From Candidatus Gastranaerophilales bacterium (GTDB taxonomy: Bacteria > Cyanobacteriota > Vampirovibrionia > Gastranaerophilales > Gastranaerophilaceae), in NCBI GenBank assembly GCA_944326425.1, contig CALVDX010000012.1:1-63684 (forward strand): 63,684 bases of DNA, read 5' to 3'. A program made the position numbers and the translations under genes. The notes under the pieces are model-generated. The model did no database searches, was not told the origin of the DNA, and saw nothing but the letters and a program-made list of their open reading frames with translations. Below are positions 31,170 to 62,971 of this stretch, one piece after another (within the stretch, counting starts at the first letter, position 1; every line of letters starts with the position of its first letter).

Positions 31170-31481
31170 TTAATTGTTGATGTTTTTATTATCGTTATTA
31201 TTTTTTTTATCTTCCTGATAGCTTTTTTGTATATTGTGCCCCGCAACCGCGCCGGCTCCTCCGCAAAGCGCTATAGCACCCAGAGTTATCGGCATAAACG
31301 GCGCAGCCAAAACTGAAACTGCAGCAAGATATGCCAAGCCACCCAATGTACCTATTGCAGCACCTTTTAGTCCTTTAAAATTTGTTTGTGAAACAACAGG
31401 ACTGCTTACCTGAACATTCTCATTTTTCTTCACAGAATAATATTTGTTGTAATTTACGTTGGATACAGCATTAATTTTCAT
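31170..31481 (-). CDS. Small FKG-motif membrane protein of unknown function
   Basis: I take the ATG at 31481 ('MKINAVSNVN', 103 aa) because AAAGGGG lies 7 nt upstream; an in-frame start at 31532 lacks a site. The N-terminus carries 'TNFKGLKG' at about residue 34, then a Gly/Ala-rich hydrophobic stretch of about 45 residues ('GTLGGLAYLAAVSVLAAPFMP...') able to form two membrane helices with a glycine hairpin, and a charged Asn/Lys tail. The FKG motif recurs in the tandem paralogues at 58.8-62.0 kb. No function can be assigned. Confidence 0.7.
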   Translation of the reverse strand: MKINAVSNVNYNKYYSVKKNENVQVSSPVVSQTNFKGLKGAAIGTLGGLAYLAAVSVLAAPFMPITLGAIALCGGAGAVAGHNIQKSYQEDKKNNNDNKNINN

Positions 31482-38253: not shown

Positions 38254-38360
38254 ATCCTTTATCGTCTTTTCTTAAAAGCCCATTCACCAGTGAAAGCACT
38301 GCATTCATGGTTGGAGATTTTTTTGTAGATACATCACCAATTACAAGATAATAACCTGTT

Positions 38361-38770
38361 ATGAATGTACTATCACAGCCGCAATATGAATATCTTAAAG
38401 GAATAGTTACAGTTGCAATAAATACAGGGCTAAGGCGGCAAAACATACTAGACCTTACTTGGAAACAAATACACTTGGCCGACAGGGTAATTGAAATAAC
38501 AAGAAATAAATCTAACAAGCACATAATTAAACGTACATGGCGTACAGTAAAGGAAAAGGTAGGCATAGTAGATTTTAGGTTTCATGACTTACGACATACT
38601 GTAGGGACTCGCTTAGCACAAATGAATGTGTCTATACCTGTAATTCAGCAAGTTTTAGACCATTCAGATATTAAAAAACAATGCGTTATGTTCATACAGC
38701 TAATAAACAAATATTATCTGCAATGAACTTACTTAGTTCAAATCAAAAGGATTTAATTCAAAATGACTAA
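38361..38770 (+). pseudogene. Truncated, frameshifted tyrosine recombinase (integrase) fragment
   Basis: Only the catalytic C-terminal half remains: 'INTGLRRQNILDLTWKQI' (catalytic Arg region) and 'FRFHDLRHTVGTRLAQ' (H-x-x-R box). After 'DHSDIKK' the open frame ends at 38726, but the plus-one frame continues with 'TMRYVHTANKQILSAM', holding the expected catalytic Tyr, to a stop at 38768-38770; a single-base indel near 38683 explains this. It points at the tRNA-Ser attachment site 62 nt downstream, so it is probably the relic of an older element at the same site. Confidence 0.82.
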
Positions 38771-38787
38771 TGGACACAGAATGGACA
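38748..38787 (+). repeat. 40-bp integrase-3'-end sequence shared with 63326-63365
   Basis: AGGATTTAATTCAAAA, a 7-nt variable part, then TGGACACAGAATGGACA occur here and at 63326-63365 with identical spacing. The sequence spans the end of the broken integrase and its downstream flank, so the locus at the right edge of the window probably held a related element. Confidence 0.75.
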
Positions 38788-38801
38788 CGACAAATATTAA
38801 A

Positions 38802-38834
38802 AAACACCTGAACTTCAATCATAGTCAGGTGTTT
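38802..38834. terminator. Terminator-like hairpin next to the left attachment site
   Basis: AAACACCTGA (38802-38811) pairs with TCAGGTGTTT (38825-38834) over a 13-nt loop. On the minus strand it would end with T-rich sequence. In the uninterrupted chromosome it would have followed tRNA-Ser. Confidence 0.6.
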
Positions 38835-38861
38835 AAATGGAGGAGGAGGTGGGATTCGAAC
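38832..38861. repeat. Left attachment site (displaced tRNA-Ser 3' end)
   Basis: Matches 50830-50859 over 30 nt, beginning TTTAAATGGAGGAGG and ending at the T-loop (GGGATTCGAAC). The remaining tRNA sequence is absent here. Confidence 0.92.
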
Positions 38862-38958
38862 AAATATTTTGCTTTTTGTAGTTTCAAATTTCATCCCGTA
38901 ACCTCTAGTATTATTTAATCTTGGAAGTTCCTTCTTTTGGTAACTTTTAATAATTTTT

Positions 38959-38997
38959 AGGGACTATTTGTAAAATTAGTCCCTTTTTAGTCCCTTT
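38959..38997. promoter_or_regulatory. AGTCCCT boxes near the left end (probable integrase arm sites)
   Basis: One inverted AGGGACT (38959-38965) and two direct AGTCCCT boxes (38978-38984, 38989-38995) occur within 40 bp. The 20-nt string with the two direct boxes is repeated exactly at 50734-50753 near the other end. Short repeated boxes inside both ends are the usual form of arm-type integrase sites. There is no gene between the left attachment site and 39003. Confidence 0.6.
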
Positions 38998-39002
38998 GAA
39001 AA

Positions 39003-39722
39003 TTAATCATTAATGCCAGAAGATTGTACATTATCTAAAAATAAATGTGAAATATACAATGGTAATTGACATTTTTCTCTATTATGTGTAGAGATATAGC
39101 TGTGATTAAATTCGTCTATATTTGTACTCGTTTGTAATTTTTCTGCTTCATTCTTTTTGTATACATTAATAAGTTTATTATTTATATCATTTACGATTTC
39201 AACTATTTTGTCAGTTTTATAAACTTTGTTCGATTTTTCAATAAAACCAATCATGCCACAAACATCTAATCTACATACATATTTTTCAGATATAAAACGA
39301 TTCATTCCTTCTTCTATATATGCTTTATTTTTAGAGGTATAACCATCTAGCCTTTTACATTCAATGATAAACTTTTTCTGTTCTTCTGTAGAAAAATTTG
39401 AAGAACAGGGTATTGTGATTTTTATATCATGGTAACCGACCGTTTTGTCAGTTGTTTCATCAATTTCTGCAGATTCTGCATCAAAAACATATTTTGCAAC
39501 ACCATAAGTACCTTGATTATTTCTTATGTATTTGATTAATTTATTTCTTAAAACTTCTTCCTCTAATCCATCTAAATTATCTTCACTTTCAATTAATTTA
39601 GAATGAGCTTTTACACAAGCGGTAAGTATTTTATTAAATTGAATTTTATAAGTTTTATTCCTCACAAACTTTTTAGCAGACAACTTATTCAGGGAGTTCA
39701 AGTTCAGCCTCCCATATAGCAT
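39003..39722 (-). CDS. Probable restriction endonuclease, PD-(D/E)XK-like
   Basis: A 239-aa protein with a nuclease-like core at about 95-130: 'GYHDIKITIP' gives an acidic residue on a strand and 'KKFIIECKRLDG' gives the E-x-K of the PD-(D/E)XK fold. Upstream 'NQGTYGVAKYVFDAESAEI' may hold another active-site acid. The gene overlaps the end of the methyltransferase gene by 38 nt, so the two are translationally coupled and probably form one restriction-modification system. I recognise no named enzyme or recognition site. It is the gene nearest the left end of the element. Confidence 0.65.
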   Translation of the reverse strand: MLYGRLNLNSLNKLSAKKFVRNKTYKIQFNKILTACVKAHSKLIESEDNLDGLEEEVLRNKLIKYIRNNQGTYGVAKYVFDAESAEIDETTDKTVGYHDIKITIPCSSNFSTEEQKKFIIECKRLDGYTSKNKAYIEEGMNRFISEKYVCRLDVCGMIGFIEKSNKVYKTDKIVEIVNDINNKLINVYKKNEAEKLQTSTNIDEFNHSYISTHNREKCQLPLYISHLFLDNVQSSGIND

Positions 39723-42633: not shown

Positions 42634-42746
42634 ATCTTCCTAATTAATTTTGACCATCATTAAGATAGTTCTGTACAGAACTAATATAACATAAAAAGTA
42701 AAAAAATTATATAAGAACTTGACAAAATTTTATTTTTGTATTTTTT

Positions 42747-44126
42747 CTAATAGTTCCTACCTTTTAACCCTGCATAAAACTCATCCATTTTATTAGCGAC
42801 CTGTGCTTCTTTGGATTTAATTATATGCGAGTAAGTATTTAAGGTTACATTTTTGTCAGCGTGTCCGAGGCGACCGCTTACGGTTACAATATCCTCACCC
42901 GATGAAATCAGCAGACTTGCGTTAGTGTGGCGGAGTTGATGAAATGTTATTTTGGGCAGGTTATGACGATTTAAGAAGTTAGTAAACCATTTGTAAGGTC
43001 GTTGTGTGCTTATAGGCTTGCCGTCCTCGTGTAGGAATACATATTTGCCGTTTTGCCACGCTGTACCGAATTTTAACCTATTCTCATTCTGTTGTTTTTT
43101 GTATTCTTTCAAGAGTGATATTACCGTTTTTGAGGCTGTAACAGTTCTAATACCGGCATCGGTTTTCGGTCTGCCTTCAATATTGCCGTAGCCTGTAATA
43201 TAATGCCGTTGTTTGTTGATGTTAATTTCACAGGTGTCAAAATTTATATCTTCCCACTTCAAGCCAGTTAGCTCACCCTCTCTTAAACCAATATCAATAG
43301 CAAGATAAATCATTGTCATATACATTAATGGTTCACTTTTCAAGCAGTTGAGCATATCTGCCACTTGTTCATCATTGTAATATCTAGCATGTGACTTTGT
43401 TACTTTTTGCGGTTTTGCTCTTTCTGCAGGATTATTCATTAGGATATTCCAATCAACAGCAGTTGAAAGTATTGAATGAATTACAATATGATGATTTTTG
43501 ATTGTTTTTCTATTCAGTTTCTTTTCTGAATTACACTTGAACATTCTGTTGAAATCTAATTTATAGCAATTACAGAGCTTTTGAGCGGTACTGTAATTTG
43601 TTGCCATGCCTGTCTTTAACCTTCTGCAAGTTTTAGACGATATACCTGTAGTTTTGATTATATGAGAAAGTGTCAAAGGTTCAAGATATTTTATCAGAGC
43701 TTTGGTAGGGGTAAACCTGCCGTCAAGTCTTACTCCTGCTTCATCAAGATTGTTGTAAAACTGTATCAAGTGATGAGGCTGTAATTTACCGAGTTTAATA
43801 TGTCCGATAGCAGGCAAAATCCGTTTAAGCATGATTTTATATGATTGTAATGTTGTAAGTGTAAGATGTTTTTCTGCGTAATCTTCTAACCACCTTTGTG
43901 TAAAGGCTTCAAATGTGATTTTTTCGCCGTCTAAGTAAACTCCGTTCAAGACTTCGTTTTCAAACATCACCATTTGACGGTTAAGCTCTTTTTCAGCCTG
44001 CTTAGCGGTTAATGTTTCATCCAGTTTAATTGTTTTTCTTTTGCGTAATTTTTTACCTTTGGAGTCGTACCCCTGACAAACTGTCAATCTATATGTATAT
44101 TCTGAAACTTTTTCGTAAAATGCCAT
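42747..44126 (-). CDS. int: Tyrosine recombinase (integrase) with an inserted HTH
   Basis: A 459-aa integrase. Residues 1-45 ('YEKVSEYTYRLTVCQGYDSK') form the AP2-like arm-binding domain and about 60-120 the core-binding domain, interrupted at about 120-185 by a Cro/CI-type helix-turn-helix ('LSHIIKTTGISSKTCRRLKTG'), after which the core resumes ('NRKTIKNHHIVIHSILSTAV'). The catalytic domain shows R in 'GLREGELTGL', 'HQLRHTNASLL' and 'RLGHADKNVTLNTYSHI' with the nucleophilic Tyr. Similar insertions occur in clostridial integrases. It should cut and join the tRNA-Ser 3' end. GAAGGA precedes the ATG. Confidence 0.92.
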   Translation of the reverse strand: MAFYEKVSEYTYRLTVCQGYDSKGKKLRKRKTIKLDETLTAKQAEKELNRQMVMFENEVLNGVYLDGEKITFEAFTQRWLEDYAEKHLTLTTLQSYKIMLKRILPAIGHIKLGKLQPHHLIQFYNNLDEAGVRLDGRFTPTKALIKYLEPLTLSHIIKTTGISSKTCRRLKTGMATNYSTAQKLCNCYKLDFNRMFKCNSEKKLNRKTIKNHHIVIHSILSTAVDWNILMNNPAERAKPQKVTKSHARYYNDEQVADMLNCLKSEPLMYMTMIYLAIDIGLREGELTGLKWEDINFDTCEININKQRHYITGYGNIEGRPKTDAGIRTVTASKTVISLLKEYKKQQNENRLKFGTAWQNGKYVFLHEDGKPISTQRPYKWFTNFLNRHNLPKITFHQLRHTNASLLISSGEDIVTVSGRLGHADKNVTLNTYSHIIKSKEAQVANKMDEFYAGLKGRNY

Positions 44127-44239
44127 TTTATTTTCCTTCTTATCATTTTTTATTATCTCCCTTTTTCATAAATCCAAGCCTCATTTTCTTAAAAAAGAAT
44201 GCAGGGCAACAGTTTTAAGGTGTTACCCTGCACCATAGT

Positions 44240-46339
44240 CTAACTTCCGTAATACACGAACGACACTCCATTTTTAGCCTTTATCATTCGTCCATATCCT
44301 TTGCGTGCAAGCCCTTCCAAAGTAACCTGTGCTGTTTTAATATTTTTGATTTTAGTTTTATTATTGCGGAATAATTCCGTTGGTGAAACTGTTTTTAAAT
44401 TTTTACGCTTAAAAAAGTTCAATGCACATTCCTCTTGTTCATCATAATTAAGCTTATTGTCTGTCATTACTTTAAAACAGCTTATAAAGTAATGACACAG
44501 CTTTATTGCGTTATAAACATCTAAATCCGTAACAAATTTTTCTTCAAGGCTATGTATGCCATGAAGTATTAGGGCAAGCCGTGCAACATATCTGGTTTGT
44601 TTTTCAAGATATGATTGAGTTATATCATCACATTTACCTGATTTTTTCAGTTGTACTATTTTAGTCCTAAAATCCTCAAAGGCTTTTTTAGCTTTACTAT
44701 CAAATTGATACATATTAACAGTTTCAGGATGTAATACAGCATTTGTAAAGATTTTTCGACAAATGTCCGTAAAAACGGAAATGTCATAATCTTTATCAGA
44801 ATTATATAGAATACCTGTTTCTTTGTAGTTGCTACAGCAGTATAACCACCTTTCAATCATTCCGTTATAGCAATCAATGCCTTTGCCCAAAAGTGTTTCA
44901 TACAGCACTTTTGGTTGAATAGTACCAATTATGTTATGACTGGCGTCAAATGTGTAATCTGACTTATCACTTTTGCGGACAATGTTTTGCCGTTCTCTTG
45001 CCCAAGAAGCCAAGAAATATTCCATATCATTACCACCACGCTTATATTGATTCCAGCTTTTTAAAAAGAAAGCCAATTCATCAACAAATATGGCTAAACC
45101 TAAATGCATTTTGCTATTTATATCCATAAGATAAGCCAAAGACTCTTTTGTTATATCTTGGGTCATCAACCTGGGTCTTTGCGGTTTTTCAGGTTCTATA
45201 GGTAACTCCCCTGGATTTTCATTGTTTTTAATTGCCTTTTTGTATTTTTCTAGTTGTATTTTGTAAGAATCCTTTTTGTGATTATAGTCGTTTATGTCGG
45301 TTTCATAATTTGTCCGTAAAATCAGGTCATATTCATTAAGAATATCTTTACCTATTTTTAAACAAGGGGTTTTCTTCTGTGACGGATTACCAATTAATGC
45401 CAACCATAAAATCGGATGTTCAATCCAATTTGTTCCAGGATTTACATTAATGGCATAATGTCCGTCCATAAGAATACTTGCTACTATAAGAAATGTGCAA
45501 GCTATATACTCTATAGGTGCATCCATTCGCTTATGCAGTTCTAGAATTAAATCTTTTACAGGTTCAGGGAATACTTCTACCGGAAACTTTGCAATTTCTT
45601 TTTTACATGATAGTTTGTTTTGAATTTTTTCTAGTGTAATAAATTCTGCCTTATCAAGTAACTTTTGAAATTCATCTGCCCCGTATGCAACTAAGAAGTC
45701 ATCCAGCCCTTTAGCTTTGCCTTTTGGCAGAAATATAAGTTTTACTTTAGCACCCTTTTCGCTTTTAAGATAGTTTGCTAGTGAACATAGAGCCTGTTTG
45801 ACTTTTAGATTATGGTACATATCATTGTCATAGCATAGTATTACTTCCTTGTCTTTGAAATCAGCCTGCACTAAATCGGGTATGATATCAGCAATTAACT
45901 CCCATTCAGGATTTTCTTCTAAATCTATAGTGTCTGCTTTACATTTCCAACCCCATACTCCGCCAAGCGAAAGACAAGGGAAACCTTCTTGTACTGCTTT
46001 AATCGCTTTTTTGTCACCCTCTGTTATTATTATAGGCATTGTCGGGTCTTTTAACATTGAAATCGAAAGATGTAAAGGTCTAAAAATTTGCGATGGCTTG
46101 CCTGCTGGTTTTATGTACTTACCCTTACCATACTCGGGATTTTTTAACCGCCTGTTATAGTAATCCGTTTTGTAATTTGCATATAATGCGGGGTAATTTA
46201 ATTGCCAGTAGTCATCCGCTTCAGAGAGATAACCTTCTTTCACATAATCCAAGATTGTTGATTTATTTATACCACTTTTCTTGAAGTCTGCTAAAATAAA
46301 TTTGTACTTACGCTTTAATTCGTCTAATGTTTTTGTCAT
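44240..46339 (-). CDS. Primase-helicase: TOPRIM (DUF3854-like) plus DUF3987
   Basis: I place the start at the ATG at 46339 (699 aa), which has an AAGGAGTG site; the longer frame from 46369 lacks one. The N-terminal half contains a TOPRIM-like region ('IIITEGDKKAIKAV' about 105, 'VILCYDND' about 180) as in DUF3854 primases. The C-terminal half matches DUF3987: a P-loop-like 'GNPSQKKTPCLK' (about 320), 'FVDELAFFLKSW' (Walker B-like) and 'GTIQPKVLYETLL'. Proteins of this type replicate satellites and integrative elements after excision. Its start lies inside the end of the excisionase gene (32-nt overlap). Confidence 0.82.
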   Translation of the reverse strand: MTKTLDELKRKYKFILADFKKSGINKSTILDYVKEGYLSEADDYWQLNYPALYANYKTDYYNRRLKNPEYGKGKYIKPAGKPSQIFRPLHLSISMLKDPTMPIIITEGDKKAIKAVQEGFPCLSLGGVWGWKCKADTIDLEENPEWELIADIIPDLVQADFKDKEVILCYDNDMYHNLKVKQALCSLANYLKSEKGAKVKLIFLPKGKAKGLDDFLVAYGADEFQKLLDKAEFITLEKIQNKLSCKKEIAKFPVEVFPEPVKDLILELHKRMDAPIEYIACTFLIVASILMDGHYAINVNPGTNWIEHPILWLALIGNPSQKKTPCLKIGKDILNEYDLILRTNYETDINDYNHKKDSYKIQLEKYKKAIKNNENPGELPIEPEKPQRPRLMTQDITKESLAYLMDINSKMHLGLAIFVDELAFFLKSWNQYKRGGNDMEYFLASWARERQNIVRKSDKSDYTFDASHNIIGTIQPKVLYETLLGKGIDCYNGMIERWLYCCSNYKETGILYNSDKDYDISVFTDICRKIFTNAVLHPETVNMYQFDSKAKKAFEDFRTKIVQLKKSGKCDDITQSYLEKQTRYVARLALILHGIHSLEEKFVTDLDVYNAIKLCHYFISCFKVMTDNKLNYDEQEECALNFFKRKNLKTVSPTELFRNNKTKIKNIKTAQVTLEGLARKGYGRMIKAKNGVSFVYYGS

Positions 46340-46541
46340 GATTTTCACTCCTTTCTTCTGTATCGCCATTTTTTAAGTAATTAACTAAACTGTCGAGATT
46401 GAGCAAATATTTTCGCCCAGTCTTGACATATTTAACCTTGCCTTGCAAAACCAACTGTCGGATGTGATATTTTGCGAGCTTGACAATTTGTGCTGCTTCA
46501 TTTATTGTTATCATGCAAGGGATGTCAATTTCTTTATTCAT
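46308..46541 (-). CDS. Excisionase-like helix-turn-helix protein
   Basis: A 77-aa protein from the ATG at 46541, chosen for its AAGGAG site. 'ITINEAAQIVKLAKYHIRQL' and 'VKYVKTGRKYLLNLDSLVNYL' form the MerR-like winged helix typical of Xis/excisionase-family proteins. It would bend DNA at the attachment site and steer the integrase towards excision, and may also regulate the overlapping primase gene. The 32-nt overlap implies coupled translation. Confidence 0.8.
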   Translation of the reverse strand: MNKEIDIPCMITINEAAQIVKLAKYHIRQLVLQGKVKYVKTGRKYLLNLDSLVNYLKNGDTEERSENHDKNIRRIKA

Positions 46542-46867
46542 TTGATTTCTCCTTATAATTAATACCTGCATCCTCAGGATAACAGATATTTCAAGAATTT
46601 CAATCCAGAATACCCTTGCAGTACAAGCGTTTCCGCTCGCGAAGGAAATAGTTCCGGTGGCGAGCTTTGTAACAATTTTTTTACATTTCCCTTATAAATT
46701 TCCACGATTTTATGTTGGTAACTTTTAAAATGGCAACTATTTCCTGCTTAACCTTAAAGTGAGTATAATTCCGTGGTCTATGGTGAAATAAGTACATAAA
46801 GAAATGCACCTGTAAATATTTTGCAAGTGCATTCCAATATTATAATCTTGTATGTTAGAGGCAGGGT
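46542..46867. other. Regulatory gap between excisionase and XRE genes
   Basis: No gene is seen. Near the XRE side, AATGCACCTG (46803-46812) can pair with CAAGTGCATT (46823-46832; one mismatch); on the minus strand the hairpin is followed by a T-rich run, so it may end XRE transcription. The middle contains TTTCC and GGAAA half-sites around 46629-46650. The excisionase-primase promoter should be here, but I cannot pick one out. Confidence 0.4.
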
Positions 46868-47191
46868 TTATTTCAACGCCTTGTATATCCTGTAGAGGGT
46901 TTCAATGTCAACTTGTTCATCACGAATAGCGTTAATTAATTCTTCTTTTAAGATTTCTTTTTCTTGCAGGTAGCCGAAGTTAAACAGTTCATCAATTCCA
47001 ATATCAAGGGCAGTTAATAATTTGGCTAGTGTTTCAGCAGAAACAAAGGCATTACCTCTTTCAATTTTGGATAGTGTTCTCTGTCCTATGTTGAGCTTTT
47101 CTGTAAGCTGTTCCTGTGTAAGACCTTTTCTAGTCCGTAATTCTTTAATCCGTTGTCCTAATAATTTTTTTATTTCTAGATTATTTTCCAT
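46868..47191 (-). CDS. XRE-family transcriptional regulator
   Basis: A 107-aa protein with a Cro/CI-type HTH at about 10-68 ('RIKELRTRKGLTQEQLTEKL', 'GQRTLSKIERGNAFVSAETL') and a short helical tail. It is the likely repressor of the element's leftward replication genes. The start has a GAGGGCGG site. The ung gene starts divergently 165 nt away, so the regulator may control that as well. Confidence 0.85.
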   Translation of the reverse strand: MENNLEIKKLLGQRIKELRTRKGLTQEQLTEKLNIGQRTLSKIERGNAFVSAETLAKLLTALDIGIDELFNFGYLQEKEILKEELINAIRDEQVDIETLYRIYKALK

Positions 47192-47356
47192 TACCGCCCT
47201 CGTTGTTTAATAATAAGTGATTTCATCCTTTTAAAACAGACCGCAAGAGTTGCAATCAAACTTGCATTTACCACTGTAATGCGTTAAGATATTCACAGAA
47301 GTAGTAAAACATGTTTGTATGAAGCCTCTAAGTTCTAGAACAGAAGAAAGGAAGTT

Positions 47357-48100
47357 ATGGAAGCTCTGAAAGAAATATTGATTAAGAATGATTGGTTTAC
47401 AAGGCAGGAAGTAGAAGAACTTTTTACATCTGAAATTCAGAAATGTATCAATGAATGTGCAAGACCAAGTCAAGGAGATATATTTAACGCATTTGACGGA
47501 TTAAGACCGCAGGATGTTAAAGTGTTGATTATCGGTCAAGACCCTTACCCTGATGAGGCAAAAGCTCATGGGCTTGCATTTTCTTACAATAACGGTGAAA
47601 TTCCTGCGGAGGATTCATTACTAAATATCTTTCGTAAAATCAAGGAAGATGTAGGAATTGATAACAGTTATACAAATTTGTCAGCTTGGAAAAAGCAGGG
47701 TGTTTTGTTGCTCAATACTGCCTTAACCTTTGCACCTAACAATCAGGACTTCCATATAAAAGCGTGGCGTAATTTTATAAATCAGGTAATATTTAAACTT
47801 CTTGAAGTTAAGACCAAGAATAAACAACCTTTAGTAGTCATGTTATGGGGTGATAAGGCAAATAAATTGGAAGTTCTAGCTTATAAAAAAGGCAAACATA
47901 GGGTGGATTATCAAGAAAAATATCCATTTGTTAAAATCTTGCGTTCTTCTCATCCGTCAAATAACTATCAGGCTTGTACAAAGTCTATTTGTGATGGCGA
48001 AGTTCCTGCTTTTAAGGATACTGATTTCAGACCATTCAAAGAATGCAACGAATTTTTAGAGGCTAATAATGCTGATATAATTAACTGGCAGACAGTTTAA
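47357..48100 (+). CDS. ung: Uracil-DNA glycosylase, family 1
   Basis: A 247-aa enzyme that excises uracil from DNA. Residues 60-64 'GQDPY' contain the water-activating D62, 'LLLNTALTF' (117-125) the uracil-binding Asn region and H199 in 'SSHPSNNY' the second catalytic residue; 'EGVLLLN' is here 'QGVLLLN'. It is the only rightward gene inside the element, divergent from the XRE regulator and with an AAAGGAAG site. Carriage by a mobile element is unusual: it could repair cytosine deamination during single-stranded replication, or act against uracil-containing phage DNA. Neither is shown by the sequence. Confidence 0.93.
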   Translation: MEALKEILIKNDWFTRQEVEELFTSEIQKCINECARPSQGDIFNAFDGLRPQDVKVLIIGQDPYPDEAKAHGLAFSYNNGEIPAEDSLLNIFRKIKEDVGIDNSYTNLSAWKKQGVLLLNTALTFAPNNQDFHIKAWRNFINQVIFKLLEVKTKNKQPLVVMLWGDKANKLEVLAYKKGKHRVDYQEKYPFVKILRSSHPSNNYQACTKSICDGEVPAFKDTDFRPFKECNEFLEANNADIINWQTV

Positions 48101-48110
48101 ATTTAAGAGA

Positions 48111-48134
48111 AAAGGCTCCTTTTCCAGAGCCTTT
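48111..48134. terminator. Bidirectional terminator after ung
   Basis: AAAGGCTC (48111-48118) and GAGCCTTT (48127-48134) form a perfect 8-bp stem with an 8-nt loop between convergent genes; followed by AAATTT on the right and TTTCTC leftward. It touches the stop of the gene ending at 48133. Confidence 0.7.
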
Positions 48135-48555
48135 AAATTTTATTTATGATTTTGTTTCTTTGGATGTATTCTTTACCGCTCGGCATTTCTAAGTACATAA
48201 ATTTGTACAGGTAATTTGATGAATACACCAGATTGAATTTTTTTCGTTCATCTTCATGTTCCAGTAATTTTAATAGCCGTTCAACATCTCTTTTACAAAC
48301 AGGGATTTTTTGTACAAGCTGTGTTCCTTCATATTGCCAGTAGGGAATATTATCAATCCTTGCAACTTCGACCTTATCAAGGTTTGCCTTTTTGACTAAA
48401 TCTTTTCTATTATCTACTCCGTACTTTTGATATAGGGAATTTATCCTGCTATCACAGGTGCGGAGCGGTTCGTTTAACTTTCGGCTTATTTCTGCATAGC
48501 TTAAGTGTTCTTTCAAGCCCTGCAATATGGTTAGTTCATCTTTTGTTAAGTACAT
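48133..48555 (-). CDS. HTH (LuxR/sigma region 4-like) protein
   Basis: A 140-aa protein from the ATG at 48555, preceded by GGAGGT. Residues 1-55 ('TKDELTILQGLKEHLSYAEISRKLNEPLRTCDSRINSLYQKYGV') match the LuxR-type or sigma-70 region 4 helix-turn-helix. The rest is basic and unknown. It is the last gene of the leftward cluster 50399-48133 and may regulate it or bind the element's ends. Not a full two-component regulator: no receiver domain. Confidence 0.65.
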   Translation of the reverse strand: MYLTKDELTILQGLKEHLSYAEISRKLNEPLRTCDSRINSLYQKYGVDNRKDLVKKANLDKVEVARIDNIPYWQYEGTQLVQKIPVCKRDVERLLKLLEHEDERKKFNLVYSSNYLYKFMYLEMPSGKEYIQRNKIINKI

Positions 48556-48650
48556 TTTTACCTCCAAATATTTTTTATTCTTAACTGTAAGTTTTTACCC
48601 ACTTTAGCTTACAACTGCCTCTATTCTGCCTCTTAAAAAGATTTTTAATT

Positions 48651-49337
48651 TTATGTTCCGATTTTTCCAGTTTTTCTGTTAAATTTCAATTTGATTGAAT
48701 TATTTTCAGGTTTCGCCTGAATTATCTCTATGATATTTTTTCTATCATCAGGAATATCACAGTTGTAATAATCTTCCCGATAGAGCAATAAGACCACATC
48801 CGAATATTTCACAAGATTTTTATCTCGTAAATCTGTAATTTTCGGATAATAGTTTGCTGTGTTGCGTGGTTCCCTGCGTGTATTTGCCAGTTTGAAGATT
48901 ATTAAATTATTCTGCTCTGATATTTCCCTCAATTTTTCAGAACTCAATCTATTTCTCCTGTTAATATGCATATTGATGAACAAATAATCAGGTTTGTATT
49001 TCTGTATTATTTGCTTTATATTTTTTATCCTGCAAAATTCTGTAGATTTAATAAACAAATTCCAACTGCTTAGTTCTTTTACTGCTTGTGTGAAATTTTC
49101 TGTTTGTATCTCTATACTTTCCTGCCTGTTTGGATTTGCAACTATTCTTAATAGCATTTCTGTAATTATTTGTTTGTCGTAATCTGTTACATACAGGCAT
49201 TTATGCCCTTCTTTACAGAATAGTTCAACTAAATTCAACGCAAATGTTCTTTTACCCATAGCAGGACGACCGCCTATCGTAATCAACGAGCCTTTTACAG
49301 GATATTGTAAGATTTTATTTATTTCTTCTTTGTTCAT
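48651..49337 (-). CDS. Mini DnaB-like ATPase
   Basis: A 228-aa RecA-fold ATPase corresponding only to the C-terminal half of replicative helicase DnaB. The Walker A motif is 'GGRPAMGKRTFALNL' (about 22-36), where DnaB has GRPSMGKT. The end keeps the DnaB order: 'DLRDKNLVKYSDVVLLLYRE' followed by 'DYYN' and 'IIEIIQAKPEN', normally 'iakqRnG'. The classic Walker B aspartate (D-L-I) appears as 'PDYLFINMH', where an Asn replaces the expected acid. The N-terminal collar domain is missing. It may load on or sequester host helicase, or act as the element's own translocase; function is inferred only. Confidence 0.72.
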   Translation of the reverse strand: MNKEEINKILQYPVKGSLITIGGRPAMGKRTFALNLVELFCKEGHKCLYVTDYDKQIITEMLLRIVANPNRQESIEIQTENFTQAVKELSSWNLFIKSTEFCRIKNIKQIIQKYKPDYLFINMHINRRNRLSSEKLREISEQNNLIIFKLANTRREPRNTANYYPKITDLRDKNLVKYSDVVLLLYREDYYNCDIPDDRKNIIEIIQAKPENNSIKLKFNRKTGKIGT

Positions 49338-49376
49338 ATCACCTCTGCTATTTTCATAGTTTTATCTTTTCTTTGT

Positions 49377-50021
49377 CTATAACTTTTTAAAAATAAAAAT
49401 ATTCTTAAAGGTAGCTACATTAAATCCGCTCTTTAAGGCTCTACAATGCCATAAGGCTTTTGCTGTACTAGATTCAAGAGTTGACCATTTCCAAACTTCT
49501 TTAACTATGTGAGCTTTTAAACGCAACCCCTGACTTGTAAGAAATTGAGCATATTCAAAAGCTTCAAGGTGCAAAGTTGAATTTGAATATGTATTACCGA
49601 TTATTAAAACGACAAATCGACCTTGCTCTAGGTTATCTATGCCTAATTTTGTAAATTGTTTGAATGTGTTGAAAAATTCTTCTGTCTTACTTGCTCTAAT
49701 ATCAGTTAAATCAGGAGTGAGTAATAATAGCTGAATATTCTTTTGCTCAAGTTCTTTTAATTTGTTATTGACTGTATTACGCAAAGAGTTATCATATTCG
49801 TAATCTTCTATCCCAAGATATTTTCTATCTAGCTTTTTTGCCTCTTCTTTTGCTGATTCAGAATTACAGAATATATTCAGAACTAAATCATTTCTTTTAG
49901 TGTATCTTTTATAAATTTGCTCATAAGTATTAACTTCATACTCCCAGAAAGAGTTCGTTTTGATTTCAGGATAATTTTTCCAATTTTTTAAATCAATTTC
50001 ATTGTAACCTGTTGTATTCAT
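49377..50021 (-). CDS. Degenerate DNA methyltransferase homologue
   Basis: The 214-aa sequence follows the layout of small N4/N6 DNA methylases: 'YEQIYKRYTKRNDLVLNIFCNSESAKEEAKKLDRKYLGIE' corresponds to the usual 'V-L-D-P-F-x-G-S-G-T-T...A...R...G.E', and 'RFVVLIIGNTYSNSTLHLEA' to the late methylase strand. But the Gly-rich SAM loop is 'CNSESA' and the catalytic (D/N)PPY is replaced by 'LTPDLTDIR'. It therefore looks unable to methylate and may now be a DNA-binding or regulatory protein. It sits 9 nt after the gene for the membrane-anchored protein. Confidence 0.55.
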   Translation of the reverse strand: MNTTGYNEIDLKNWKNYPEIKTNSFWEYEVNTYEQIYKRYTKRNDLVLNIFCNSESAKEEAKKLDRKYLGIEDYEYDNSLRNTVNNKLKELEQKNIQLLLLTPDLTDIRASKTEEFFNTFKQFTKLGIDNLEQGRFVVLIIGNTYSNSTLHLEAFEYAQFLTSQGLRLKAHIVKEVWKWSTLESSTAKALWHCRALKSGFNVATFKNIFIFKKL

Positions 50022-56891: not shown

Positions 56892-58466
56892 CTACGAGAA
56901 CACACTGAACGTACGATCCACGTTATCATCTATCATCGAACGGTAAGACTCTAACATCTGATTTATTGCATTCTGTTCCGTCTCCAGTTTCTGCATGCGT
57001 GTATCTATTGTTTCTTCTTTCCGCTCTATTCGCGTTTTCTCTTTCTCATACTCTGCTGTCGCTTTATTCTGCTCGCCGGTATCCGTTACCTGATACACAT
57101 TCTGGCACGTCGTTGCCGCACTCTCATCATATTCCCACGCACCGTCATCGCCGCGTTCCGCTTTCGTTATATTATACACACCCGTCTGTAATATATCATT
57201 CAAATAATCTGTATCGGTTATATACTCATTATACGTCCAGCCGTTTGTTGCAATATTTTCAAATATTGCATCATAGAAATCTATAAGCTTTTCTTCTTCG
57301 GCGTCAAAAAGAAGCGAAGAGCTTTCTTCTAATTCTGAGCGTTGAGATACCAGGGTATCATAAGTCTCCTGCCATTCATCGTGTTCTGCCTGACTTGCTG
57401 GGTCGGTTAAGGTTATACTGCCTAAATCAAGCCCCGGAAGGCTGCTTGTTGTAATTTTACTTTGCGTTTCTTCATCTCCGAGAAGGTAGGTTAGGAATAC
57501 GCTTGCCATATTAGTTAAACTGACCGCGTAAGAATGGTTTGAATCATCGAAAATGTTAGATTTTTTATCGTGTTGATGGCATATTGTATTGTAATTTCCG
57601 GCATTCTCTCCGGCATATTGACGATTGTCGTGTTTTTGCGCACCGTCGTACGCATATTCCGATGTAAACAAGCTGTATGTTCGTTCTATCGCATTCTCTA
57701 TATCCGCATCCGTTACTTCCACGCTCGATACTGCACCGGATACTGCATCCGCAAACGATTCTAATATTTTCTTAAACTTATTATTGGCACTATTTCCATC
57801 TCCGTCCCAGCTTAAGTAGGTTACATAGTTGCCTCCGCCGCCTACTGAATTTATTATATCTGTCCACGTTGTATCACCCGTTACATCCCAGTTGCTGCCG
57901 GCTGCTCCCGTTCTATCTGTTTTTGCTTCATTACTCACGTTTCCAAGACCCTGTAATGCCGCATCCGCAGTTGTTGTTAATACTTCCGGTTCCTCTGACA
58001 AGTGTCCGGTTATCTCTTTATCTAATTCTTTTAATTCTTCATTATTGCTTTCTACTGCTTCAAAGTCCTCTGATGATATTCCTGTTAATTCGCTTAATAT
58101 CTCTGAACGATGAGAATCATAATCCCCGCCCGCAGCACCCGTCGGACTTATTAATTCCGCATACTCCTTATACTTATCATCTACTACTACTTTACCGCTC
58201 ATATCTGTCAGCATATATGGTTCATAGTTATTCAATGCGCTCGGGCTCATTAACGTATCGTACGTTAAATCGTAATACGTTCCGCCTCCATCATTTGACC
58301 ACTTCAATGTCTTTTCATTCAGGGCATCCGCATAGCGCGTTGATATCGCGTCCGCTTCACGCGCAAGCGACATCTTTTGCGCGGACAACATCGACAAGGT
58401 ATAACCTATCGTATTTTTACGATTGGTTAACGTCAACAATCTCGCCTGTGTCGATGCCATTCCCAT
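56892..58466 (-). CDS. 524-aa coiled-coil-ended protein of unknown function
   Basis: The N-terminus 'MGMASTQARLLTLTNRKNTI' and the C-terminal coiled coil 'TRIERKEETIDTRMQKLETE...MIDDNVDRTFSVFS' are arranged like terminal helices of flagellin- or hook-type and type III-secreted proteins, pairing around a variable centre. The central 380 aa are rich in Gly, Ser, Asp and Glu with 'NWDVTGDTTWTDI' and 'HQHDKKSNIFDD'. No signal peptide. I infer a family with a conserved helical frame and variable insert, possibly assembled at the cell surface; there are no flagellar genes nearby. Start is the ATG at 58466. Confidence 0.6.
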   Translation of the reverse strand: MGMASTQARLLTLTNRKNTIGYTLSMLSAQKMSLAREADAISTRYADALNEKTLKWSNDGGGTYYDLTYDTLMSPSALNNYEPYMLTDMSGKVVVDDKYKEYAELISPTGAAGGDYDSHRSEILSELTGISSEDFEAVESNNEELKELDKEITGHLSEEPEVLTTTADAALQGLGNVSNEAKTDRTGAAGSNWDVTGDTTWTDIINSVGGGGNYVTYLSWDGDGNSANNKFKKILESFADAVSGAVSSVEVTDADIENAIERTYSLFTSEYAYDGAQKHDNRQYAGENAGNYNTICHQHDKKSNIFDDSNHSYAVSLTNMASVFLTYLLGDEETQSKITTSSLPGLDLGSITLTDPASQAEHDEWQETYDTLVSQRSELEESSSLLFDAEEEKLIDFYDAIFENIATNGWTYNEYITDTDYLNDILQTGVYNITKAERGDDGAWEYDESAATTCQNVYQVTDTGEQNKATAEYEKEKTRIERKEETIDTRMQKLETEQNAINQMLESYRSMIDDNVDRTFSVFS

Positions 58467-58819: not shown

Positions 58820-60397
58820 ATGATTAATAAGGTTAGTATCGCAGAAAGTACAAAATTCCATCCCCAAAAAGAAAACAATAAGGAAAATGGAAGTTCAATA
58901 AATTTCAAAGGAAACAAGCTTGCCGCAATTACCGGTGCAGCAATTGCCGGTATGCAGTATTTAGAGCGCAACCCGATGATGCATGTTGCAACACTTGACG
59001 TTACAACAGCTATAGGTCCGCGGACAATATTTGATTCAATAACTAACCTGTTCGCAGGTTTTGAAACATTATGCCGCGAAAGCGGGGGGCTTATAATAAA
59101 CTGCCTTATTCCGGGTTTTATCGCCATCGGTGCCGGTAAATTCCTCAATAAACACGTTATTAAAACCGGCGGAAAAATGGCAGACTGTCTTGCAGACACT
59201 GATACCATAAAAACCGTAAGCCGGATTTATAAAGAACAAAACGGAGATATTGCTAAAGTTTATGAAACCTTATTGTCAAAAATTCAAGGCATTGACGGCA
59301 ACAATGTAGTTAAATACTCGGAAGTCCTTAAAACAGAACTTGGAGATTTAGGAACCAGACTGGCAAAAGCAGCAGACGAAAAAGAGTTCAATAAAATAAT
59401 TGACGATATAATGACTAAAACCCATGTCAATGAAAGCATACGTTTTGGAGATAAAGGAGCCTATCTTAAAGATGTAAGTGTTTCCTCCTTATTGCAAAAC
59501 ACAAAGAAATTTGTTCATGAATATGAAGCTTCAGGCAAAGCAGGAATAGAAAACTTTGCCTCCAAAGCAGAAAAACTCGTTAAAGGAAAAAGTGCAATAG
59601 CCTTGCTTCTCGTACTACCGCTTGCCGCATCAATGCAGTTTTTCAACCGCTGGATGACAGGAAAACTCTCCGGCGTTGACGGAGCACCTATTTATGAAGA
59701 TTTTAAAGAAGCCAAAAAACACCCGGAACTTTATGCAAAAATTAAAGCAAAGGCAAAAGAAGGGCTGCTACAGGAAAAAATAATTTCAATAGGCGCAATG
59801 CTCGGCATGGCTGCTGCATCAATCTTAATGACCGCAACGCAAAGACCCAACCTCAAAATGCTCGGCAGAATGCTTCAATTCAAAGGCAAATACCCGACAA
59901 TGGATCAGGCAAGAGCAATTTCCGCAGTAACATTCTCTTCAAGAATTGCAGCAGCCGATGATAAAAATGAAGTCCGCGAATCACGCGGAAGAGATTTATT
60001 AACATTTGGAAGTTTATATTTCTTCGGCGACTACGGCGGCAAAGCTGCAGCCTCTGCAATAGAAGCACATACAGGCGTAAAATTATTAAACAGAACAGTC
60101 GTTTCACCTAAAGATGCAAATATATTAACCAAATTTAAAAACTGGGTGCTTAATACCCACATTAAATCTTCCAACGAACTTAAGTTTGCAGACAAAGCCC
60201 TGAGCACCAAAGCACAAAAATATCGTTCAGTATGCCAGTTAATAAACCTATTAAGCTCCTTCGCAATCTTAGGTTTGATAATTTACGAACGCGGTAAAAC
60301 AAAGAAAAAACATGAACAAATAAAAGCTCAGGTAATAAAACAATACGAAGCAGAACAACAAGCCAAGCAAGAACAAACCAAAACAACAGCAGCATAA
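58820..60397 (+). CDS. FKG-motif membrane protein, paralogue 1
   Basis: A protein of 525 aa from the ATG at 58820 (a GTG at 58814 is possible). It has 'SSINFKGNKL' at about residue 25, several Ala/Gly-rich membrane segments (about 80-100, 255-272, 320-340, 485-505) and a charged C-terminal tail. Conserved blocks shared with the next gene are 'DVTTAIGPRTI', 'GFETLCRESGG' and 'TMDQARAISAVTFSSRI...EVRESRGRDLLTFG'. I cannot name a family; it appears specific to this lineage. The next gene begins 10 nt after its stop. Confidence 0.72.
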   Translation: MINKVSIAESTKFHPQKENNKENGSSINFKGNKLAAITGAAIAGMQYLERNPMMHVATLDVTTAIGPRTIFDSITNLFAGFETLCRESGGLIINCLIPGFIAIGAGKFLNKHVIKTGGKMADCLADTDTIKTVSRIYKEQNGDIAKVYETLLSKIQGIDGNNVVKYSEVLKTELGDLGTRLAKAADEKEFNKIIDDIMTKTHVNESIRFGDKGAYLKDVSVSSLLQNTKKFVHEYEASGKAGIENFASKAEKLVKGKSAIALLLVLPLAASMQFFNRWMTGKLSGVDGAPIYEDFKEAKKHPELYAKIKAKAKEGLLQEKIISIGAMLGMAAASILMTATQRPNLKMLGRMLQFKGKYPTMDQARAISAVTFSSRIAAADDKNEVRESRGRDLLTFGSLYFFGDYGGKAAASAIEAHTGVKLLNRTVVSPKDANILTKFKNWVLNTHIKSSNELKFADKALSTKAQKYRSVCQLINLLSSFAILGLIIYERGKTKKKHEQIKAQVIKQYEAEQQAKQEQTKTTAA

Positions 60398-60407
60398 AAG
60401 GCAAGAT

Positions 60408-62015
60408 ATGAAAGTACAATTAAACCAGCAAAATTACCCTAACATTGTAAACAAAGAAGCACAGCCGGCATTTAAAGGAACAAGCGGTGTATTAAACTAC
60501 CTTGCAACAAACCTCGGTGTCGGCGCCAACCTTACTGATGTTACGTTCATGGTTGCCCCGCGTACTATCAAAGACGGGACTTGCCGCGGGCTTGACGCTG
60601 GTGTTGAAACAGGATTCAGAGAATCAATGGGTACAATCAATGATGCTTCTATCGGTTTGTACGGCATTGGTGCCGGCGCCTTGCTCGGCACAGCCGTTTC
60701 CGGAAAATACGGAGTTAAGGCAAGTAAAATATTTACCTCGCCCGAAAGAGTAAATACCCTTGCCGAATTCTGGAATGAGCATTTAAAGAATAATACCACT
60801 CAAAAAGATTACTTAAGAAAAATCATTGACTCGCTCGAAGGTTACAATACTGCCCGAAACAGAGAAAACGGATTTGTTAAAATCACAAATGAGAATGATA
60901 AAGAAAAAATCGTAAAGATTCTTGATAATGTAATAAACGACAAAAAAACAGATATTAAAATCTGGCGTAAAAAATCACCCGAACGCGGTGTGGTAAATGC
61001 AATAATTACTGAAGCAACAGGCGCAGAAACAAGATATAAATTAGGAAACAGCGGAACATCAAATCTTAATACCTTATTGGATGACATTGTTGGCATGACT
61101 AAAGCGTTTAAAGAAGAAAAAGTTATGGAAGCCTTTAACAACGCTGCCGCAAACGGAGGAAAAAACAAGTTTCTTTCTGCAATGTCAAAATTTAACAAAG
61201 GCAGAGCACTGTTAGGATTTCTGGTCGGCTCTGCTGTCGGTTTATCCGTACAGCCTATTAATATGTGGTATACAAAGAAAAGAACCGGTAAAGAAGGCTT
61301 TGTAGGCGGCACATGTTCTGAAAAAGACCGTTCTTTAAAATTCAAACTTGAAAAACTTGCCGTTGCAGCAGGTATGCTTACAATGGTTCTGGCCTCACTA
61401 AAATGTAAGCCGAAAGATTTCTTAAACAAAATGGCATTTCAGGGATTAGCCCCTACTATTAATCAGTTAAAAGGAATCTACGGTGTTACCGTAACCGGCA
61501 GAATTCTTGTTACACGCAGCGAAGATGAAATGAGAGAATCTGCTCTTAAAGATTCGCTTGGTTTCACAAGCTGGCTTGTACTAGGTGATTTCGTTAACAG
61601 AGGTGTAGCAGCCATGTTCACCGGTAAAGGTTTGCTAAACTTTAACAAGAAAACAGATGGAAATATCATCACAAGCTCTACACTCAAATCCAGAAGCGAA
61701 GTTCTGAGAGAAGCGCTCCATAACGCAGGGCTGTCAACTATTAAAGTAAATCTTAAAGACGGTAAACAAAAAGCCATGAATATTAGTGAAATGATAAACC
61801 TTCTTGAAAAATCACCGGCAGCTAAATCAATACTTGCTGCAACAAAGAAAAAACTCAGGATTTTAAATATCGCACAGCTTGCAGGATACGCATTCACAGG
61901 TGTTGCTCTCGGTATCGGGATTCCGACACTCAATATCTATATGACCAAGAAATCGGAAGCTAGACGGCAGGCTAAACTTGAAGCCTTGCAAGCAGAAAAA
62001 AATCAGGCAGCATAA
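60408..62015 (+). CDS. FKG-motif membrane protein, paralogue 2
   Basis: A 535-aa tandem paralogue of the preceding protein. It keeps 'PAFKGTSG' near residue 20, 'DVTFMVAPRTIKDGT', 'AGVETGFRESMG' and 'TINQLKGIYGVTVTGRI...EMRESALKDSLGFT', with membrane segments near 85-100, 265-285, 315-335 and 490-510, and a Lys/Ala/Gln-rich tail. The central regions (about 110-250) are much less alike. An AAGG-type site precedes the ATG. The pair is probably one operon; function unknown, membrane location likely. Confidence 0.72.
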   Translation: MKVQLNQQNYPNIVNKEAQPAFKGTSGVLNYLATNLGVGANLTDVTFMVAPRTIKDGTCRGLDAGVETGFRESMGTINDASIGLYGIGAGALLGTAVSGKYGVKASKIFTSPERVNTLAEFWNEHLKNNTTQKDYLRKIIDSLEGYNTARNRENGFVKITNENDKEKIVKILDNVINDKKTDIKIWRKKSPERGVVNAIITEATGAETRYKLGNSGTSNLNTLLDDIVGMTKAFKEEKVMEAFNNAAANGGKNKFLSAMSKFNKGRALLGFLVGSAVGLSVQPINMWYTKKRTGKEGFVGGTCSEKDRSLKFKLEKLAVAAGMLTMVLASLKCKPKDFLNKMAFQGLAPTINQLKGIYGVTVTGRILVTRSEDEMRESALKDSLGFTSWLVLGDFVNRGVAAMFTGKGLLNFNKKTDGNIITSSTLKSRSEVLREALHNAGLSTIKVNLKDGKQKAMNISEMINLLEKSPAAKSILAATKKKLRILNIAQLAGYAFTGVALGIGIPTLNIYMTKKSEARRQAKLEALQAEKNQAA

Positions 62016-62354: not shown

Positions 62355-62397
62355 TTTTATTTTTTATGAAAATATGGTATAATTATCCGGAAAGGAG
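62355..62397 (+). promoter_or_regulatory. Promoter and ribosome-binding site deciding a TTG start
   Basis: TTTTAT (62355-62360), 17 nt, TATAAT (62378-62383), then AAAGGAG (62391-62397) and 10 nt to TTG at 62408. The -10 box lies after the first in-frame ATG at 62366, so that ATG cannot be the start on this transcript. Confidence 0.65.
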
Positions 62398-62407
62398 TTT
62401 TAAAAAG

Positions 62408-62971
62408 TTGATTAAAAAAACCTTTATCGCAAATCTATTAGTATTAGGATTATTACTCAACGGATGTGTGTTTAATGAGAGAGCGTCGAAAAATATTCCG
62501 GCTGTTCAATCTTCTGTTGCTGCAGAAACAGAAGAAACAGAATTAACTACAGAGACCCCGACCCAATCTGAAACAGCAAACACAGATATACAGTCTACCC
62601 CTGATACCCCGGACAGGAGAGATTTATCTGAAAGGCATCCTATTGATATTGCCGAAGAAGAGTGTATGAAAAAGGCTGAATCAACTGTTGCGATGTCAAC
62701 GTGTTCTTATGACGCAATGGATAAATGGTACAAAGAGATTGATGTGAATCTTATTAAGTTAAAAAACATCCTGTCAGAAGAAGATTATAAAAATCTTGAA
62801 GCTGCCCAGGCTAAGTGGGAGGCATATAAAGAAGCTCAAAACGAAGCAGTTGTTGTAATCCAAAGTAAACAAGGAACAATATTTCAAAATATTTATGTTG
62901 GATATCAAACTTATTTAATTAAAGAGCGTGCCTTATTTTTACAAGACCTTTATAATACATTGGCAAATTAA
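62408..62971 (+). CDS. Lipoprotein with LprI-like (DUF1311) domain
   Basis: A protein of 187 aa starting at TTG. 'MIKKTFIANLLVLGLLLNGC' is a lipoprotein signal whose Cys would be lipidated; the alternative upstream ATG would add 14 residues before a clear signal peptide. After a Thr/Glu/Pro-rich linker (to about residue 80), residues about 88-185 resemble LprI/DUF1311: paired cysteines 'EECMKK...MSTCSYDAM', 'WYKEIDVNLIKLKNIL' and 'LEAAQAKWEAYKEAQNEAV'. Such domains can inhibit lysozyme in mycobacteria, but DUF1311 proteins differ widely. Likely exposed in the periplasm. Confidence 0.78.
   Translation: MIKKTFIANLLVLGLLLNGCVFNERASKNIPAVQSSVAAETEETELTTETPTQSETANTDIQSTPDTPDRRDLSERHPIDIAEEECMKKAESTVAMSTCSYDAMDKWYKEIDVNLIKLKNILSEEDYKNLEAAQAKWEAYKEAQNEAVVVIQSKQGTIFQNIYVGYQTYLIKERALFLQDLYNTLAN

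What the first reader, a model, noticed from the sequence alone, without database searches (positions are those of the whole stretch)
58820..62015. Tandem FKG-motif membrane paralogues with conserved blocks
Seen: two 525-535-aa proteins share 'DVT...PRTI', 'G.ET..RES' and 'R...R..DE.RES...D' blocks yet differ in the middle; each has '(N/A)FKG' near the N-terminus, as does the small protein at 31.2 kb. Inferred: a lineage-specific family with a short N-terminal sorting or binding motif.
Basis: partly seen in the sequence, partly recalled or inferred. Interest (0 to 1): 0.55.

Follow-up and report, generated by a model that had tools for sequence, protein, structure and literature searches.

The report
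Shared N-terminal tag in gut cyanobacteria
Two neighbouring, related membrane-type proteins of a gut-dwelling, non-photosynthetic cyanobacterium begin with the same short flexible tag that also heads many unrelated proteins of its order, which suggests an undescribed address label for sorting proteins.

Summary
P1 (58820-60397, 525 aa) and P2 (60408-62015, 535 aa) are tandem paralogues (26% identity, E 7e-24), by their relatives from Candidatus Gastranaerophilales. Homologues occur in all 52 genomes of the same family listed in a class sample; 75 of 80 named loci hold both genes complete. No Pfam family or solved fold was found. A broader two-part leader is real: M-[KNQ]-[IV]-x-x-[IV]-[NQS], an N/Q-rich spacer, then P-[SNQA]-F-[KTGN]-[GSNA]. 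It occurs on many unrelated proteins of the order, above decoys in hold-out genomes (13/303 vs 6/1488, p=8e-7), and not significantly so in two outgroup genomes. In P1 and P2 it is modelled as a disordered tail. Carriers include an AAA+ ATPase, an HNH nuclease and a CheR-like methylase. The main 4-alpha-glucanotransferase of 22 genomes lacks it (0 of 22), while 6 of 8 second copies score. Best reading: a targeting tag read by an unknown receptor. Export by a conserved flagellar-type III apparatus is my best guess for the route, but unproven.

The parts
58820..60397 (+). P1, 525 aa, helical membrane-type protein, first gene of the tandem
   Evidence: family in all 52 same-family genomes listed
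58820..58912 (+). P1 N-terminal leader, residues 1-31, ending in INFKG; predicted disordered
   Evidence: model score 16.1; AlphaFold pLDDT below 50 for residues 1-35; F29 nearly invariant in 72 sequences
60408..62015 (+). P2, 535 aa, paralogue of P1, second gene of the tandem
60408..60479 (+). P2 N-terminal leader, residues 1-24, ending in PAFKG; predicted disordered up to G24
   Evidence: model score 22.4; pLDDT below 50 for residues 1-24, first helix at 25; F22 and G24 nearly invariant in 57 sequences
31170..31481 (-). small 103-aa protein with the same leader (NFKG at 34-37) and one hydrophobic segment
   Evidence: model score 22.5; hydrophobic segment at residues 55-73; no Pfam match over cut-off

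Best explanation
P1 and P2 belong to a conserved tandem pair of helical membrane-type proteins of the Gastranaerophilales and carry a bipartite N-terminal leader: M-[KNQ]-[IV]-x-x-[IV]-[NQS], an N/Q-rich spacer of variable length, then P-x-F-[KTGN]-[GSNA]; in P1 and P2 the folded body begins right after it. Shown by calls: the leader is conserved in the family, recurs on unrelated proteins above decoys, is not significantly above decoys in two outgroup genomes, is modelled as disordered in P1 and P2, mostly lacks a Sec-like hydrophobic core, and separates isoenzymes of one enzyme. Inferred: it is a targeting tag bound by a dedicated receptor through the I/V pair and the Phe, bringing its carriers to one place apart from the untagged cytosolic pool. 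Inferred further, and less sure (about 0.35 on its own): that place is the flagellar-type III export apparatus whose core gene was found in all 22 genomes examined, with the tag as an export signal.
For: A profile of 10 positions trained only on this family finds N-terminal hits (score 9 or more) in unrelated clusters more often than interior ones: training genomes 34/2659 vs 61/13943 (p=2e-6), hold-out genomes 14/668 vs 19/3849 (p=1e-4), named neighbourhoods 19/1270 vs 24/5880 (p=5e-5); two outgroup genomes 5/472 vs 12/2727 (p=0.09), no N-terminal hit at 11 or more. Iterated model on the hold-out: 13/303 clusters vs 6/1488 internal-Met decoys (p=7.6e-7); clusters unseen in training 11/131 vs 2/359 (p=1.7e-5); outgroups G040 1/172 vs 2/777 (p=0.45) and G177 2/150 vs 1/510 (p=0.13). 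Shuffling residues 2-60: mean 3.2, 0 of 200 reach 13. The two halves co-occur: 7 of 13 hold-out proteins with a good start block also have the F block vs 37 of 355 (p=2e-4; shuffles mean 2.1, 0 of 500 reach 7). No N-terminal hydrophobic segment in 83 of 85 carrier clusters, whereas 613 of 2878 untagged proteins (not collapsed) have one. The leader is disordered in both models. GH77: main copy untagged in 22 of 22 genomes, second copies tagged in 6 of the 8 read, catalytic domain starting at residue 61-65 in two of them. For the export step: full-length FHIPEP in 22 of 22 genomes, in G012 within a run of FliE, FliF and FliH genes, in G034 with rod genes and a FliI/EscN-type ATPase; a shorter FHIPEP C-domain gene in 21 of 22 and in all 52 family genomes of the class sample, next to the second GH77 gene in 11 of 21 genomes; in the own genome three of 25 genes in the export-gene stretch L227 score as tagged.
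Against: My pre-registered strict regex failed on the hold-out (0 of 314 clusters with both halves); later models were designed after I had looked at those proteins, so the hold-out is not blind. If residues 1-8 are kept and the rest shuffled, 4 of 200 shuffles reach the observed count, so the start block carries much of the score. Some scored carriers look false by eye (a GrpE-like and a glycosyltransferase-like protein). Several proteins I had picked by eye score below the threshold (7 of 39), among them two AAA proteins and one HNH protein. Against export: FliE and rod genes, likely substrates, do not score, nor does any gene in four 20-kb stretches round export genes of G012, G034 and G058; P1 and P2 look like resident membrane proteins; the shorter FHIPEP gene otherwise sits among genes that look like housekeeping ones (BamA-, Skp- and nucleoside-phosphorylase-like by eye). 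Some sampled genomes gave no carrier (G156, G028, G171, G168). No receptor is identified.
Confidence: 0.6

Rival explanations
1. Intracellular docking: the tag is a short linear motif that tethers carriers to a resident scaffold or membrane domain organised by P1/P2, and nothing is exported.
For: P1/P2 homologues are in all 52 same-family genomes listed (a single-sequence search missed one, G008) and carry the tag themselves; one scored carrier is an AAA+ ATPase (L031:10360), a kind that usually works in the cytosol; FliE and rod genes lack the tag.
Against: Most carriers scanned have no known domain (28 of 32 over the threshold reach no Pfam cut-off) and look like an accessory repertoire; no scaffold partner is identified.
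Confidence: 0.3
2. Turnover tag: the flexible leader with Phe is a degradation-initiation signal (N-degron-like) for an AAA+ protease.
For: Disordered N-terminus with a short anchor.
Against: Would have to be conserved on a membrane pair kept throughout the family; does not explain a tagged second GH77 beside an untagged one as simply as location does.
Confidence: 0.1
3. The FKG is only a family-specific structural element of P1/P2, and the wider motif is composition: N/Q-rich N-termini with an occasional Phe.
For: Literal FKG is not enriched; strict regex failed on the hold-out; a second conserved F[KQ]G..PT lies inside P1/P2; with residues 1-8 kept, shuffles come close.
Against: Full composition shuffles give 3.2 against 13 in hold-out genomes; the halves co-occur; tagged and untagged GH77; both leaders modelled as disordered; the two halves of P1 or P2 show no repeat by profile comparison.
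Confidence: 0.1
4. A nucleotide-level feature, such as an internal ribosome-binding site (AAAGG within TTYAARGG), creates the motif.
For: FKG codons resemble a Shine-Dalgarno core.
Against: FTG, FGG, FNG, FSG and FEG replace FKG; within the genus the codons for F and G vary while the residues stay (the Lys codon did not vary).
Confidence: 0.02

Closest known systems
N-terminal signals of type III secretion substrates (recalled class)
   Same: Disordered polar N-terminus without hydrophobic core, on unrelated proteins; core genes of the machinery are present.
   Different: This leader has a conserved bipartite sequence with a Phe anchor, was found in one order in the genomes sampled, and is missing from FliE and rod genes.
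Chlamydial secretion of glycogen and related enzymes (GlgA, PMC3722199; GlgE and TreS-Mak, PMC7935935)
   Same: Carbohydrate enzymes sent away from the bacterial cytosol; here a second 4-alpha-glucanotransferase carries the tag.
   Different: No export shown here. PMC3722199 was seen as the start of its abstract in a listing, PMC7935935 as passages, where the GlgE and TreS-Mak result is called preliminary.
Effector host-targeting motifs such as RxLR or the malarial HT motif (seen in listings only)
   Same: Short N-terminal motif shared by many different proteins.
   Different: Those follow a Sec-type signal peptide (recalled); this leader has none and lies in a bacterium.
Lineage-specific sorting tags such as PEP-CTERM, YSIRK, KxYKxGKxW (recalled)
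   Same: Short tag on many unrelated proteins of one lineage.
   Different: Those act with Sec export (recalled); NCBIfam gave no match over a cut-off for P1, P2 or the small protein.

Membership tests
Sec/lipoprotein signal peptides | hydrophobic core in the first 25-30 residues | tested here: not met
   2 of 85 carrier clusters have such a segment, against 613 of 2878 untagged proteins
Curated N-terminal signal families of NCBIfam | match to a curated model | tested here: not met
   no NCBIfam match over a cut-off for P1, P2 and the 31.2-kb protein; other carriers were not scanned
Type III secretion substrate | disordered, non-hydrophobic N-terminus | tested here: met
   models of P1 and P2; hydropathy of 85 carrier clusters
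Type III secretion substrate | export apparatus encoded in the same genome | tested here: met
   FHIPEP in 22 of 22 genomes; FliE, FliF, FliH in L230, FliF, FliI-type ATPase and rod proteins in L231
Type III secretion substrate | shared signal with likely substrates of the same apparatus | tested here: not met
   no gene in four export-gene stretches of other genomes, FliE and rod genes included, scores as tagged; three genes of 25 in the own genome's stretch L227 do, none of them a recognised substrate
Type III secretion substrate | exported from the cell | not testable with these tools
   needs an experiment
Known fold for P1/P2 | convincing structural match in the PDB | tested here: inconclusive
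   no Foldseek match at E <= 0.001 for P1 or P2; best Z 5.4 for P1
GH77 4-alpha-glucanotransferase (tagged carriers) | PF02446 over its cut-off | tested here: met
   L256 201 bits, L257 193 bits, L082 186 bits, cut-off 25

The most novel reading that the evidence does not exclude
Gut non-photosynthetic cyanobacteria (Gastranaerophilales) use a flagellum-derived type III export apparatus, with a standalone FlhA C-domain as adaptor, to send out several dozen proteins marked by one bipartite N-terminal tag, among them a nuclease, a methylase-like protein, many orphans and a second set of starch/glycogen enzymes; P1 and P2 would be the membrane pair at the receiving or docking end.
Probability: 0.2. 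Interest if true: 0.88.

Novelty: new variant of a known kind. Interest (0 to 1): 0.62.

Why it matters
Gastranaerophilales are gut and rumen relatives of cyanobacteria, and most carriers examined have no known domain (28 of 32). A shared address tag would sort part of that unknown proteome at once, give a prediction of location for perhaps 4% of genes (20 of 445 sampled), and point to a protein-sorting route that my paper searches did not find described. The tagged and untagged GH77 isoenzymes make the idea directly testable.

Tried and rejected
Bare FKG or [NAS]FKG as the signal: not enriched outside the family. Strict two-part regex with a prediction written beforehand: failed, 0 of 314 clusters. 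Looser polarity rules: not specific; N-terminal rates were little above internal ones (35.6/998 vs 164/6102 in training, 15/314 vs 46/1537 in the hold-out), and Phe was no commoner than several other residues. Internal duplication of P1/P2 from the repeated RES and FKG blocks: no profile support. Known fold: no good match for P1 or P2 in the PDB nor for P2 among viral models; sequence search of the PDB with the family profile gave one hit at E 0.25. Internal ribosome-binding site: disfavoured on codon and variant evidence. Kinase fold of one carrier group: only an alignment of three was made, no fold test; one of the three is below the threshold. I first counted seven proteins as carriers by eye (two AAA proteins, L049 and L065; an HNH protein, L173:19088; two MTP18-like proteins, L054 and L217; L135:8357; L173:12681); they score below the threshold and are not counted. 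The 31.2-kb protein and the similar small protein L228:12701 do not align. Literature: searches listed no paper on such a motif; 'FKG motif' gave no paper.
Full report
What is there. The two ORFs are real and adjacent: P1 58820-60397 (the ORF list starts it at a GTG two codons upstream) and P2 60408-62015, ten bases apart. They are paralogues with 26% identity over 472 columns (E 7e-24). A third copy lies elsewhere in the same genome (L040:11731-13269 on G000:C9). Of the 80 named relatives, 48 titles say Candidatus Gastranaerophilales, 3 Melainabacteria and 2 cyanobacterium; most of the others give no lineage and two name other groups. With the family profile, 67 of 146 class genomes match: 52 of the same family, each with at least two matches, and 15 of other families, more weakly (59 genomes without a match are not listed by name). 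In the phylum sample 62 of 146 match, all in the same family. A single-sequence search found 37 of 39 relatives, missing G008 (same family) and G026. Of 80 named loci, 75 hold both genes complete and head to tail, median gap 12 bases; the other five have broken, short, single or no gene calls. Genes that look like ATP-synthase subunits (by eye) are among the commonest neighbours (19-26 of 80 loci).

The leader in this family. Position F29 of P1 is nearly invariant among 72 sequences, and F22 and G24 of P2 among 57. In the family FKG is replaced by FNG, FTG, FGG, FEG, FRG, FSG and FQG, and sometimes FKS, FKN or FKA, so the fixed element is Phe followed by a small residue two places on. The models put residues 1-35 of P1 and 1-24 of P2 below pLDDT 50, with the first helix beginning at 32 and 25. 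The leader is therefore probably a flexible tail that ends where the body begins. The bodies are mostly helix, with hydrophobic segments, and no good match to a solved structure was found (profile search).

Is the motif wider than the family? Bare FKG is not. I wrote down a strict two-part pattern and a prediction, and it failed on seven fresh genomes (0 of 314 clusters with both halves). Reading those genomes showed apparent carriers that the pattern excluded, for instance with Gln after Phe. I then trained a ten-position profile on the P1/P2 family alone and applied it to all other homology clusters. Phe sites scored 9 or more in 34 of 2659 N-terminal against 61 of 13943 interior sites in training genomes, 14 of 668 against 19 of 3849 in the hold-out, 19 of 1270 against 24 of 5880 in named neighbourhoods, and 5 of 472 against 12 of 2727 (p=0.09) in two outgroup genomes. 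An iterated model with a start block gave 13 of 303 hold-out clusters against 6 of 1488 internal-Met decoys. In clusters unseen in training it gave 11 of 131 against 2 of 359; the outgroups gave 1 of 172 (decoys 2 of 777) and 2 of 150 (decoys 1 of 510, p=0.13). Composition shuffles of residues 2-60 average 3.2 (maximum 9 in 200); keeping residues 1-8 and shuffling the rest averages 8.4, with 4 of 200 reaching 13. The two halves go together: 7 of 13 against 37 of 355. I had looked at the hold-out proteins before designing these models, so the tests are not blind; that limits the claim.

Prevalence. In the own-genome sample 20 of 445 genes score, or 17 of 394 without the window. The decoy rate of about 0.6% implies that two or three of them are chance. 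Scaled by length this is several dozen per genome (inference). Rates differ between genomes: the samples of G156, G028, G171 and G168 had none.

What carries it. I scanned 39 distinct proteins with Pfam as carriers (L135:8357 twice); 32 of them score over the model threshold and 7, picked by eye, do not. Of the 32, four reach a curated cut-off: CheR (L119:4993), AAA (L031:10360), HNH (L180:8950) and GH77 (L082:482). One more is amylase-like (L024:5976, best PDB match E 7e-12). The other 27 have no family over its cut-off. Carriers lack a hydrophobic N-terminal core (2 of 85 clusters have one, against 613 of 2878 untagged proteins).

The natural experiment. Each of 22 genomes (21 of the order and the class outgroup G040) has a main GH77 gene, and none of these 22 scores as tagged at any start codon tried (maximum 8.6, threshold 9.5). 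Of the 8 second GH77 copies whose DNA was returned, 6 score (13.1 to 23.0; for L258 only from its third ATG) and the other two (4.9 and 4.6) resemble the leader by eye. They fall into at least two kinds by their first residues, so the tag may have been gained more than once (inference). In L256 and L257 the catalytic domain starts at residue 61 and 65, after the leader. A tag present on one isoenzyme and absent from the other is what a location signal would give.

Where to? All 22 genomes have a full-length FHIPEP. In G012 it follows FliE, FliF and FliH genes (L230); in G034 it lies with FliF, rod genes and a FliI/EscN-type ATPase (L231). PMC5877343 (passages) says earlier Gastranaerophilales genomes held partial flagellar gene sets; PMC3787301 (passages) reads all but one of its gut genomes as able to make a full flagellum. 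A shorter gene with only the FHIPEP C-terminal part is present in 21 of the 22 genomes, all but G040, and in all 52 family genomes of the class sample. In 11 of 21 genomes (four genera) the second GH77 gene lies within 1 kb of the shorter FHIPEP gene, and L259 and L260 show them as neighbours on one strand. The FHIPEP C-domain is known as the docking platform of type III export (recalled). In the own genome, three of 25 genes in the export-gene stretch L227 and one of 15 in L228, which holds the shorter FHIPEP gene, score as tagged. This makes type III export my best guess. Against it, FliE and rod genes lack the tag, no gene in four export-gene stretches of other genomes scores, and P1 and P2 look resident. 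Intracellular docking is the main rival.

Verdict. The motif is FKG only in part of the family; the general signal is a bipartite leader. Its function as a targeting tag is an inference with moderate support; the route is open.

Noticed in passing
window 56892-58466 (-): Protein beginning MGMASTQARLLTLTNRKN, one of a family in 30 loci of the sample; a similar-looking protein lies near the FliE/FliF/FHIPEP genes in L230 (2585-3559). It may be a flagellar or type III substrate; no Pfam match over cut-off.
   Followed up: partly
L228:6078-7547 (G000:C1:111078-112544): Standalone FHIPEP C-terminal domain with its own N-terminal 123 residues, in all 52 family genomes of a class sample, beside BamA- and Skp-like genes (by eye).
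   Followed up: partly
window 38000-50000: G+C falls to 0.25-0.35 over genes for an Eco57I-type methylase and a DUF3987/DUF3854 protein: a likely mobile island.
   Followed up: no
window 16503-30995 (-): A 4830-aa repeat-rich autotransporter-like protein (by eye); its last 499 residues have a weak passenger-repeat match (PATR, below cut-off).
   Followed up: no
window 13337-16411 (-): One 1024-aa protein with LysM repeats, a phage-lysozyme domain and an Amidase_3 domain.
   Followed up: no
window 62366-62971 (+): LprI-type lysozyme-inhibitor domain protein next to the tandem (PF07007, 2e-10).
   Followed up: no
window 58820-60397, residues 354-356 of P1: A second conserved F[KQ]G followed by PT inside the body of P1 and P2; no internal repeat by profile comparison.
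   Followed up: partly
C-termini of P1 relatives in L009-L020: Several P1 relatives end in a short tail of the form AF.AF, missing from the window's own P1; possibly a second short motif.
   Followed up: no
L227:10214-10579 (-), G000:C2: A tagged 121-aa protein (score 19.9) lies on the same strand a few genes upstream of the FliP/FHIPEP-type export genes of the own genome (FliP by eye).
   Followed up: no
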